A DNA stretch of 64,000 nucleotides from Oscillospiraceae bacterium. GTDB lineage: Bacteria; Bacillota; Clostridia; Oscillospirales; Ruminococcaceae. This document shows positions 18,054 to 20,859 of the stretch, one piece after another. The position numbers and the translations under genes are program-made. Within the stretch, counting starts at the first letter, position 1. Every line of letters begins with the position of its first letter. Under the pieces are notes generated by a model. The model worked only from the letters and a program-made list of their open reading frames with translations. It ran no database searches and was not told the origin of the DNA. The stretch covers positions 310,001-374,000 of the forward strand of contig WRLY01000001.1 of the NCBI GenBank assembly GCA_009776305.1. Direction: 5' to 3'.

Positions 18054-18644
18054 TCATCTTGTCGCATATCCGACAAAAGCATAAAGTGCCAGCGAAATGA
18101 TTCCCACATAAACTAAAGTAATCGGCAGTCCCCGAAACGCCGCAGGAACAAGGTCGCTGTTAAGACGGGGATGGGCAATGTAAAGCAGATACCCCGCCAA
18201 AAAAAATCCAATGCCCGTCCCGATTCCGAAACCAATATATTCGGGTAAACTGCCGCCGTGCAGGGAGTTAAGAAAAAGCCCGCCCAAAACCGAGCAGTTG
18301 AAAACTGAAAGATGAACATAGGTTCTGATTTTCCTGAAAAGTCCCGGAAAAAAGCGCCAAACCAATATAAGGCTTAAAATGTAAATTATGCTTATTACAA
18401 GTATATATAAAAGAGGCATAAGTATACCGAAATGCTTAAAGTGTGAAAAGTTTGAATCCAAAAGCCATACAATTACCGACGACAGGGAGGTAACATAAAT
18501 AATAACAAGAGAAAAGCCGATGACATGCTCTTTCTTGCGCGATGCGTAAATCAAAATATTAGTGCCGAGAGCCCTCTCAAAAATTGAATTTTGTAAAAGA
18601 ATCGCCAAAAGCGCGGCGGTTAAAAACGAGGAGAAAAGTTCCAT
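18054..18644 (-). CDS. RnfA/NqrE-like integral membrane protein (divergent)
   Basis: FNCSVLGG and C-terminal AAFRGLPITLVYVGIISLALYAFVG resemble RnfA; first ligand segment GICPF replaced by GTNIL. Confidence 0.75.
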   Translation of the reverse strand: MELFSSFLTAALLAILLQNSIFERALGTNILIYASRKKEHVIGFSLVIIYVTSLSSVIVWLLDSNFSHFKHFGILMPLLYILVISIIYILSLILVWRFFPGLFRKIRTYVHLSVFNCSVLGGLFLNSLHGGSLPEYIGFGIGTGIGFFLAGYLLYIAHPRLNSDLVPAAFRGLPITLVYVGIISLALYAFVGYATR

Positions 18645-19291
18645 TATTCAGTTTCCTCCTTATTTTCACCGTCTTGGCTCTTCAATTTTTGAGACTTTTG
18701 TGAAAAGTTGAATAATGCCCTGCAAAGCCCCGCCAAAACCCCTACAATTATAAAGCCGCCGAAAGTGGTCTCAAAGGCGGGAACATCAAAACCCATATCC
18801 ACTCTTATCGAGCCTATTTGAGAATTAACAAAAATGTCTCTTATAATCCCCGTAATCATACAGACCGCCACAAATCCGGCGATATACCCTATAGTTTCGA
18901 GCAACATGTAGCCGTAGGACAACTGGAAAAACCGCGTTTCCGTCTTGGATAAAATAACGTGGTTTGTGACCAAAACAGGCAGATAAATCCCCGCTTTAAT
19001 GATTGCGCCGTCACCGACAAGGCTTTGGGCGATTAGATAGGCGGGAATGTAAATCGCCGAAGCGATAATTGCATATATAATTATACGCACAGTATAAACA
19101 AGTTTTTTCGGAACTATTCTGCATAACGCCACTGAAAAGAAAGTAATCAGCGCGAAGACAACCGAAATAGCCGCCGCGCTTTCAAAATCCTTTGCGCCGG
19201 CAATTACAGGACCTGTAAGCAATCCGCTCATCAATACTATGTTTTGACGAACCAAGCCGTCAGAGGGGCGACCTTTTATATTTGAACTCAA
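18644..19291 (-). CDS. RnfE/NqrD-like integral membrane protein (divergent)
   Basis: RQNIVLMSGLLTGPVIAGAKDFESA / LVTNHVILSKTETRF topology matches RnfE, but both usual Cys positions are substituted. Confidence 0.7.
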   Translation of the reverse strand: MSSNIKGRPSDGLVRQNIVLMSGLLTGPVIAGAKDFESAAAISVVFALITFFSVALCRIVPKKLVYTVRIIIYAIIASAIYIPAYLIAQSLVGDGAIIKAGIYLPVLVTNHVILSKTETRFFQLSYGYMLLETIGYIAGFVAVCMITGIIRDIFVNSQIGSIRVDMGFDVPAFETTFGGFIIVGVLAGLCRALFNFSQKSQKLKSQDGENKEETE

Positions 19292-20859
19292 GACTTTTCC
19301 TCCGTTTGGTTTTCAGATTCTTCCGCCTCAATTTTGGCTATGTCCTTGGCTATTTCCTCAAAGTCGGTTATTTTTACGTTGTTTTTTGAATCATCTTTTC
19401 TTGAAGAGCGTTCTTTTTTGGTTGGTTTTTCCTTGGTTTCGGCAGTTTCGGAAATTTCCGAAATTTCCGAAACTTTACGATTAGATTTTTTTCTGAAAAT
19501 GTTTATAAACTTCAGGCAATATTTTTTAATACTCTGGTACAAAGTTTTAAACGCCACCGCCACAAAAAAGTCTTTGAACTTTTCGGGACTGTCGAAAGAA
19601 TCGACGTCGGTTGCAGGCGGGTTTTTGATTGATTTTGCTTTTTCTTTCAAGCTTCTTGGTATTTCAATAACAAACGTCAAAACATTCCGCTTTTTTCGGT
19701 TTAATTTAATGACCTTATTGTCAATCGGCGGCATATCATAATTTGAGGGCTCAATAATAATTTCCTGTGTGGCTGAAAGCTCGGGGGTTTTTCCCGATTT
19801 TGCGTCCTCGCTGAAACGCTCATAAGCACTCAGCCTGTCCTTTAAAGTTTCGGCTATACGGTTTAAGCCCGCACGGGTTTTTTCAGCGGAAGCATCAAGC
19901 CTGTATGAGAATGTGTTTGTAGCTAAAATAGCGAAAATAAACCAGCCCTCAACCCTGCCCCTGAACATTCCGTCAAAGCTACCTCTGAATATTATTGTAA
20001 AAATCCCCAGTAAAATTCCATAATAAAGCTTGCCGAACACGGTCTTTGGGAGGGTTTGGGGGTCGTTTGCAAGGAATAAAAGCGCGAATAAAAGATAGCC
20101 GCCCACAAGTTCTCTTACCAGCGCACCGATTATATCATCATAAATTGGGAACAATAAACGGAAAATAACTATAACGCTCAGGGTGGAAATAGTTACAACA
20201 GGCGAAACAGAACGGCGCAATAAAAGGCAAACGCCGCAGACAAGAATGATAAGCACATGGGTTGTGCCTATTGGACCGGGGAAATTACCCAGCAAAATAT
20301 TAAGCGGTGTAATCACAGGGAACGCGCTTCGGCTTAAAAGCAGATTTTCAAGTCCGGCATTAAGGGTATAGGAGGCTTCTGTCGCAAGAGGAAAAAGCGG
20401 TATGGTTTCTCCCGCGGCAGGGAATTGAAGCATCCTCCCGGGATAGCATATAATAAGGAAAGCAAACGCAACCGCCGTCGGGTTAAAAATATAATTATCT
20501 TTTCCGCCGAAAATATGCTTTACGCCAATAGCCAGTGCGCTCCCGAAAATAAGCAACTGATAAGGCAATATAACCGGCGACATAAGTGCCAGACACAGCC
20601 CCGACGTTATGGTTGACAAATCGCGGGGGTTATAGACCTTACCGGTGAGGCGGCAACAAATCATATCCACGATTACCGCTGTCAGTACAGCAACAAAAGC
20701 TAACCCGAAAGAGCGGGTTCCGCTCTTTATTGCAGCCATGCCTAAAAGCACTAGTAAAAAAAGTAACTGGTCGCCGTATAAATGGAGCGGCTTTCTCCCT
20801 AACAGGGAGGAGCGTCTTTGCGCGGTAGTGTTGTCAAAAGTTTCGGAATAGTTGTTCAT
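19288..20859 (-). CDS. RnfD/NqrB-like integral membrane protein with long charged C-terminal extension
   Basis: YNPRDLSTITSGLCLALMSP, FNPTAVAFAFLIICYP, LGNFPGPIGTTHVLIIL resemble RnfD; about 190 residues beyond the last TM are Lys/Glu/Ser-rich. Confidence 0.8.
   Translation of the reverse strand: MNNYSETFDNTTAQRRSSLLGRKPLHLYGDQLLFLLVLLGMAAIKSGTRSFGLAFVAVLTAVIVDMICCRLTGKVYNPRDLSTITSGLCLALMSPVILPYQLLIFGSALAIGVKHIFGGKDNYIFNPTAVAFAFLIICYPGRMLQFPAAGETIPLFPLATEASYTLNAGLENLLLSRSAFPVITPLNILLGNFPGPIGTTHVLIILVCGVCLLLRRSVSPVVTISTLSVIVIFRLLFPIYDDIIGALVRELVGGYLLFALLFLANDPQTLPKTVFGKLYYGILLGIFTIIFRGSFDGMFRGRVEGWFIFAILATNTFSYRLDASAEKTRAGLNRIAETLKDRLSAYERFSEDAKSGKTPELSATQEIIIEPSNYDMPPIDNKVIKLNRKKRNVLTFVIEIPRSLKEKAKSIKNPPATDVDSFDSPEKFKDFFVAVAFKTLYQSIKKYCLKFINIFRKKSNRKVSEISEISETAETKEKPTKKERSSRKDDSKNNVKITDFEEIAKDIAKIEAEESENQTEEKS

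What the first reader, a model, noticed from the sequence alone, without database searches (positions are those of the whole stretch)
18054..20859. Orphan Rnf/Nqr-like membrane module (A-E-D only) that seems to have lost its redox cofactor ligands
Seen: three overlapping minus-strand genes encode RnfD-, RnfE- and RnfA-like proteins. No rnfB, rnfC or rnfG lies beside them or elsewhere in the 64 kb. Established: in Rnf/Nqr, RnfA and RnfE (NqrE/NqrD) each give two conserved Cys to an intramembrane [2Fe-2S] cluster (segments like 'GICPF'/'NCAVLG' in RnfA and 'GMCP'/'VNCIIxxRAEAF' in RnfE). RnfD carries covalent FMN at a [ST]-x-A-T motif. Here, by eye-alignment: RnfA has 'ERALGTNIL' (Cys lost) but keeps 'FNCSVLGG'; RnfE has 'SGLLTGPVIAGAK' (Cys to Gly) and 'LVTNHVILSKTETRF' (Cys to His); RnfD has no [ST]-x-A-T in the expected loop (LATEASYTLNAG). 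Inference: a catalytically stripped Rnf core kept as a stable trimer, possibly a channel, scaffold, transporter or a module using other cofactors.
Basis: partly seen in the sequence, partly recalled or inferred. Interest (0 to 1): 0.85.

Follow-up and report, generated by a model that had tools for sequence, protein, structure and literature searches.

The report
Rnf pump core without redox parts
In many gut bacteria of the Oscillospiraceae, three genes for the membrane core of an ancient electron-driven sodium pump (Rnf) survive as a separate, well-preserved unit whose electron-carrying parts have been lost, so it probably does a different, non-redox job such as transport.

Summary
Window 18054-20859 (minus strand) encodes RnfD-, RnfE- and RnfA-like proteins in one overlapping cluster; no rnfB, rnfC, rnfG or apbE was found in the (71% complete) genome. 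The D-E-A trio recurs in about 78 distinct Oscillospiraceae/Ruminiclostridium loci, almost always as rpe - (mecA) - D-E-A - DUF4015. In 86 rows, three of four [2Fe-2S] cysteines and the FMN-threonine are always gone; the fourth cysteine is gone in 19. Median dN/dS is 0.07-0.13, so it is no relic. 43 of 50 carrier genomes also hold a canonical RnfA/E pair. An intermediate exists: rpe - C-D-E-A without B and G, whose RnfC lost the FMN/NADH loop but keeps its [4Fe-4S] cysteines. The tree supports canonical, then CDEA, then DEA; canonical operons sit at the same locus in other families. The two riboflavin-binding residues of RnfD and the Na+-handling Arg-Glu pair of RnfE stay nearly invariant. Best reading: a redox-stripped, neofunctionalised Rnf paralogue, most likely a cation-coupled alternating-access transporter, perhaps acting with a cell-surface glycosidase-like protein. 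Transport is inferred, not shown. I found no description of it in the papers searched.

The parts
19288..20859 (-). RnfD-like subunit (523 aa): RnfD fold, FMN-Thr lost, riboflavin ligands N126 and D266 kept, long cytosolic C-terminal tail with a conserved motif (TQEIIIEPSNYDMPPIDNKVIKLNRKK)
   Evidence: PF03116 156.8 bits; AF2 pLDDT 77.8, Foldseek best 9eri_D/7zc6_D TMt 0.78/0.82; site mapping; tail
18644..19291 (-). RnfE-like subunit (215 aa, TTG start): both [2Fe-2S] Cys lost (G27, H111); Arg69-Glu118 ion pair and Asn110 kept
   Evidence: PF02508 56.6 bits; alignment A1; site mapping
18054..18644 (-). RnfA-like subunit (196 aa): first Cys replaced by Asn29, second Cys117 kept, Asn116 kept
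   Evidence: PF02508 87.4 bits; 120-protein alignment; site mapping
16680..17915 (-). DUF4015 protein: basic N-terminus, one TM helix, glycosidase-like barrel predicted outside; constant downstream neighbour
   Evidence: PF13200 59.7 bits; within 3 genes downstream in 76 of 77 loci; AF2 pLDDT 84.5; Foldseek nearest include PgaB GH domain and Cwp19
16201..16548 (-). YajC homologue, next gene downstream; within 3 genes of A in 43 of 77 loci
   Evidence: PF02699 93.7 bits; synteny
20877..21545 (+). MecA-like adaptor, divergent to the D gene; the only MecA match found in this genome
   Evidence: PF05389 50.8 bits
21555..22208 (-). ribulose-phosphate 3-epimerase (rpe; named from its sequence), upstream neighbour that marks the syntenic locus
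   Evidence: within 3 genes upstream in 74 of 76 loci; also beside CDEA loci and a canonical rnf operon (L080)

Best explanation
The D-E-A trio is a neofunctionalised paralogue of the Rnf membrane core that no longer carries electrons by the Rnf route. SHOWN: it lacks the ligands of the A/E [2Fe-2S] cluster and the covalent FMN of RnfD, has no RnfB/RnfG beside it, is under purifying selection, and is nested in a clade of rpe-linked C-D-E-A forms that lack B, G and most ligands, so RnfC was lost last. INFERRED: the A/E dimer keeps its inward/outward alternating-access movement, now driven by ion or solute binding instead of cluster reduction, and moves Na+/H+ (alone or with a solute) using the retained Arg69-Glu118 pair of E and the central Asn residues of A and E. 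D, a fold related to ammonium/urea channels with a retained riboflavin pocket, is either the solute route or a structural, riboflavin-loaded partner. The membrane-anchored DUF4015 glycosidase-like protein points to a role at the cell surface.
For: Ligand loss in 86 DEA rows: A-C25 0/86, E-C25 0/86, E-C108 0/86, FMN-Thr 0/86; A-C113 lost in 19. Retained: E-R67 86/86, E-E115 84/86, A-N112 86/86, E-N107 81/86, D-N123 83/86, D-D249 80/86, although only 33 of 144 canonical-invariant positions are kept overall (6 of 12 non-redox functional sites kept, p=0.03, site set taken from PMC11889175). RnfB-contact residue A-R154 is lost. New DEA-specific fixed residues: A P77, Y80, Y88, L92, H111; E F121. 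Median dN/dS A 0.073, D 0.128, E 0.116. Tree: DEA 100/100, nested in CDEA (97/94), CDEA+DEA apart from canonical 100/100. 43 of 50 carrier genomes also have a canonical A/E pair, scores clearly separate. Synteny with DUF4015 76/77 and rpe 74/76. Fold of D retained. Literature: A/E described as an alternating-access Na+ path (PMC11889175) and RnfD as related to ammonium/urea channels (PMC12174285).
Against: No direct evidence of transport, of assembly of the three proteins or of a substrate. E88 of RnfA, the third member of the ion-pair network, is lost (Leu). In the CDEA relatives E115 is mostly lost (3/15), so the pair is not essential to the whole lineage. Retained riboflavin ligands leave room for some redox role. 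The p=0.03 is modest, treats sites as independent, and the set of functional sites rests on one study.
Confidence: 0.45

Rival explanations
1. Non-transporting scaffold: D-E-A is a membrane platform that holds the DUF4015 glycosidase-like protein (and perhaps YajC or a cytosolic partner of the conserved D tail) in a cell-envelope complex.
For: DUF4015 downstream in 76 of 77 loci; conserved cytosolic tail motif in 56 of 86 D proteins; L140-L153 loci lie among what look like envelope genes (MBOAT-like, PBP-like 739 aa).
Against: A pure scaffold does not explain near-invariant buried ion-pair, Asn and riboflavin residues. DUF4015 also sits beside canonical rnf operons (L080, L212), so the adjacency may be positional; it is absent from the f24 CDEA loci.
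Confidence: 0.2
2. Residual flavin function: RnfD still binds riboflavin non-covalently and the complex acts as a flavin-dependent redox sensor, a short electron path, or a riboflavin permease.
For: N123 83/86 and D249 80/86 kept, both riboflavin ligands essential in A. woodii (PMC11889175); the CDEA relatives keep eight RnfC [4Fe-4S] cysteines; a related Nqr/Rnf-like system lacks the D flavinylation site but is proposed to bind flavin non-covalently (PMC10979944).
Against: No electron donor, acceptor or FMN_bind partner is encoded nearby, and no ApbE or RnfG was found in this genome. N123 and D249 lie in motifs that may be kept for structure.
Confidence: 0.15
3. Regulatory or exchange partner of canonical Rnf: the stripped subunits replace or modulate the redox A, E or D in hybrid complexes.
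For: 43 of 50 carrier genomes also have a canonical RnfA/E pair.
Against: 6 of 50 carriers and this genome show no canonical pair (MAG incompleteness not excluded). All three subunits stay together as a separate operon at a fixed locus.
Confidence: 0.12
4. Decaying relic of a lost rnf operon with no function.
For: Loss of genes and ligands along the series.
Against: dN/dS 0.07-0.13; invariant lineage-specific residues; intact ORFs and synteny over many species.
Confidence: 0.03

Closest known systems
Rnf complex (RnfABCDGE; Acetobacterium woodii 9eri, Clostridium tetanomorphum 7zc6)
   Same: Homologous D, E, A subunits; D fold retained (TMt 0.78-0.82); same relative order D-E-A as in C-D-G-E-A-B; E Arg-Glu pair, A/E Asn and D riboflavin ligands kept; canonical operons at the same rpe/mecA/DUF4015 locus in other families.
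   Different: No B, C, G; three or four of four [2Fe-2S] Cys lost; FMN-Thr lost; RnfB-contact residues lost; no apbE found in this genome; new invariant residues; own clade at 100/100.
Na+-NQR (NqrABCDEF)
   Same: A precedent for neofunctionalisation of an rnf duplicate with gene loss (PMC4014512); its NqrA (RnfC equivalent) lost its redox cofactors (PMC11889175).
   Different: NQR keeps the A/E-type [2Fe-2S] cluster and the flavins and is still a redox pump; DEA lacks the ligands for both the cluster and the covalent flavin.
Nqr/Rnf-like flavinylated systems (Meheust 2021, PMC8238504; PMC10979944)
   Same: Partial Rnf/Nqr gene sets; RnfD-like subunit without the flavinylation site.
   Different: Those are RnfD fused to an NAD-binding domain plus an FMN-bind protein and ApbE, mainly in Actinobacteria and CPR; only two apparent subunits. 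DEA has A and E and no FMN-bind or ApbE.
Ammonium/urea transporter family
   Same: RnfD is described as structurally related (PMC12174285); weak Foldseek matches to urea transporters.
   Different: Only marginal similarity (E>=0.018); no transport shown.

Membership tests
Rnf complex (redox-driven ion pump) | homologous membrane subunits RnfD, RnfE, RnfA | tested here: met
   PF03116 and PF02508 over cut-off; D fold match
Rnf complex (redox-driven ion pump) | four Cys of the A/E [2Fe-2S] cluster | tested here: not met
   window keeps 1 of 4; 86 DEA rows keep 0 or 1
Rnf complex (redox-driven ion pump) | covalent FMN threonine in RnfD ([ST]xAT) | tested here: not met
   T156 absent in 86/86
Rnf complex (redox-driven ion pump) | RnfB, RnfC, RnfG subunits and ApbE | tested here: not met
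   none beside the trio; none found in the 71% complete genome
Rnf complex (redox-driven ion pump) | NCBIfam subfamily cut-offs for rnfA, rnfE, rnfD | tested here: not met
   84.5/229.3, 31.3/213.4, 99.1/207.05 bits
Rnf complex (redox-driven ion pump) | riboflavin ligands in RnfD (N123, D249) | tested here: met
   83/86 and 80/86; window N126, D266
Rnf complex (redox-driven ion pump) | RnfE Arg67-Glu115 pair implicated in Na+ handling | tested here: met
   86/86 and 84/86; window R69, E118
Rnf complex (redox-driven ion pump) | ion pumping coupled to ferredoxin:NAD+ electron transfer | not testable with these tools
   needs biochemistry
Nqr/Rnf-like flavinylated systems | RnfD fused to a PF00175 domain, with FMN-bind and ApbE | tested here: not met
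   no PF00175 match in the D protein, no PF04205 or PF02424 in the genome
Alternating-access secondary transporter (functional class) | substrate-dependent transport by the A/E dimer | not testable with these tools
   inference only

The most novel reading that the evidence does not exclude
D-E-A is the first non-redox member of the Rnf/Nqr superfamily: a redox pump's membrane core turned into an ion- or solute-transporting complex by stepwise loss of its electron-transfer parts (CDGEAB to CDEA to DEA) at one conserved locus in Oscillospiraceae.
Probability: 0.45. Interest if true: 0.87.

Novelty: new variant of a known kind. Interest (0 to 1): 0.74.

Why it matters
How Rnf/Nqr couples electrons to Na+ is disputed: one model puts the ion path through RnfA/E, another through RnfD/NqrB (PMC11889175, PMC12174285). 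A natural A-E-D core without the cluster, FMN-D, RnfB and RnfG separates transport from electron transfer, so ion flux through the core could be measured on its own. The CDEA forms give an order of losses. It also warns that genes annotated as 'Rnf electron transport complex subunit A/D/E' in these gut genomes are no evidence of Rnf energy conservation; the database names here do exactly that.

Tried and rejected
Shifted cysteines or FMN-Thr: rejected by alignment to canonical and A. woodii sequences. Complementing rnfB/C/G elsewhere: none found; the PF13375 hit is partial, below cut-off, in a 161-aa ORF, and the PF04060 hit is in a hydrogenase-like protein. Decay: rejected by dN/dS. The D tail as a MecA-recognition motif (it vaguely resembles ComS/ComK MecA sites, from memory): association with an adjacent mecA is imperfect (47 both, 18 neither, 9 tail only, 12 mecA only) and confounded by ancestry, so not claimed. 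DUF4015 as a functional partner: suggestive, but it also neighbours canonical operons. Paper searches found no description of such a module; only open-licence papers were searched.

Full report
WHAT IS THERE. Three minus-strand genes, D (19288-20859), E (18644-19291, TTG start) and A (18054-18644), overlap by 4 and 1 nt. Pfam places them in PF03116 and PF02508 above the curated cut-offs, but NCBIfam scores are far below those required for rnfA, rnfE or rnfD. PDB sequence searches find RnfA, RnfE and RnfD of A. woodii, C. tetanomorphum and A. vinelandii as the nearest solved relatives. An AlphaFold2 model of D (pLDDT 77.8) matches 7zc6_D and 9eri_D with TM-scores of 0.82 and 0.78 normalised by the target.

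THE GENOME. The window's assembly is 1.54 Mb in 7 contigs, 71% complete. It has exactly two PF02508 genes, one PF03116 gene, no FMN_bind domain (RnfG), no ApbE flavin transferase and no RnfC. One PF04060 hit belongs to a hydrogenase-like ORF. So nothing found completes an Rnf complex and nothing found could attach covalent FMN. Because the genome is incomplete, absence of canonical Rnf is not proven.

A LINEAGE-WIDE MODULE. Homologue searches returned 163, 154 and 342 relatives for E, D and A. A pattern scan of 85,488 species genomes found 112 A relatives; the 80 kept come from records named Oscillospiraceae, Ruminiclostridium, uncultured Clostridia and the cultured Merdimmobilis hominis An559 (a few records carry other names such as Bacteroides or Roseburia). 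Neighbourhood clustering on 78 distinct loci gives D-E-A on one strand with median gaps of 2 and 0 nt, DUF4015 within three genes downstream in 76 of 77, rpe within three genes upstream in 74 of 76, a divergent mecA-like gene in 53 and yajC in 43.

LIGANDS. Sites were mapped with the A. woodii residue numbers of PMC11889175, using 9eri segments printed (86 DEA rows, about eight of which repeat a species). A-C25 is Asn or Ser in 86/86, E-C25 and E-C108 are lost in 86/86, FMN-T156 in 86/86; A-C113 is kept in 67 and lost in 19. No DEA row has more than one of the four cluster ligands. A separate set of 120 A proteins gives Asn at the first site in 120/120. By contrast E-R67 is Arg in 86/86, E-E115 Glu in 84/86, A-N112 Asn in 86/86, E-N107 Asn in 81/86, and the riboflavin ligands D-N123 and D-D249 are kept in 83 and 80. 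Overall only 33 of 144 canonical-invariant positions are kept, so this retention is moderately non-random (6 of 12 non-redox functional sites, p=0.03). Fixed replacements specific to DEA (A: P77, Y80, Y88, L92, H111; E: F121) show new constraints. Pairwise dN/dS medians are 0.073 (A), 0.128 (D), 0.116 (E).

INTERMEDIATES. Fourteen loci (L073, L077, L078, L081, L193-L202) have rpe - C-D-E-A and no B or G. Their A/E proteins keep 0-2 cluster Cys, D lacks the FMN site, and RnfC has lost the GLGGAxFP loop of the FMN/NADH site but keeps the eight Cys of two [4Fe-4S] clusters. Several of these genomes have a separate canonical operon (L219, L220, L221, L223). A tree of concatenated D+E+A (53 rows, 710 columns, LG+C20 PMSF) separates CDEA+DEA from canonical with 100/100, puts L202 first, and nests a 100/100 DEA clade inside CDEA with 97/94 support (a 63-row quick tree agrees). 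Canonical C-D-G-E-A-B operons lie beside mecA (L079), between rpe and DUF4015 (L080) and beside DUF4015 (L212) in other families. The simplest history, inferred, is that the rpe-linked operon was the ancestral copy, lost G, B and the redox ligands, and later RnfC, while a second canonical Rnf served energy conservation.

COEXISTENCE. In 50 carrier genomes, full-length canonical proteins score at least 165 bits and stripped ones at most 102 bits with the same Pfam model. 43 have a full or fragmented canonical pair, one (G215) a single canonical gene and six only the stripped pair.

PARTNER. The DUF4015 protein has a basic N-terminus, one TM helix and a barrel domain (pLDDT 84.5), structurally near the PgaB glycoside hydrolase domain and C. 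difficile Cwp19 (query TM about 0.5), with conserved Asp/Glu/Trp residues. This hints at cell-surface glycans but does not prove a link.

HOW IT MAY WORK. Published work describes the RnfA/E dimer as an alternating-access Na+ path gated by the [2Fe-2S] cluster and the R67-E115 pair (PMC11889175), and RnfD as related to ammonium/urea channels (PMC12174285). With the cluster gone but the pair kept, I infer an A/E dimer that still switches, driven by ion or solute binding. Steps shown: gene content, ligand loss, selection, descent, fold of D. Steps inferred: assembly, movement, substrate, link to DUF4015.

VERDICT. Observation confirmed; interpretation supported with two corrections (riboflavin and ion-pair residues kept; RnfC-containing precursors exist). 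It fails the defining redox features of Rnf and should not be called an Rnf complex, though it is homologous and may share its transport mechanics.

Noticed in passing
window 19288-20859 (D C-terminal tail): Conserved cytosolic motif T-x-E-I-...-N-Y-x-M-P-P-I-D-N-K-V-x-K after the membrane domain in 56 of 86 DEA D proteins, absent in the Merdimmobilis and L140-L153 types; possible partner-binding peptide.
   Followed up: partly
window 20877-21545: Divergent MecA-like gene, the only MecA match in this genome, conserved next to the module in 53 of 78 loci.
   Followed up: partly
L073, L077, L078, L081, L193-L202: RnfC variants that lost the FMN/NADH loop but kept the [4Fe-4S] cysteines, in C-D-E-A operons without B and G: a second unexplained form, possibly a ferredoxin-sensing unit.
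   Followed up: partly
genomes G146, G158, G180, G190: Single weak PF03116 match (E 1e-38 to 1e-55) and no strong canonical RnfD: maybe another diverged RnfD type in a different family.
   Followed up: no
L140-L153, across the fetched loci: In this sublineage the module sits between what look like MBOAT acyltransferase and DHHW-like genes and a penicillin-binding-protein-like gene (739 aa) (names by eye), hinting at a cell-envelope role.
   Followed up: no
L090 and similar (E gene): Ruminiclostridium-type E proteins carry a C-terminal extension of about 100 residues, acidic and probably disordered.
   Followed up: no
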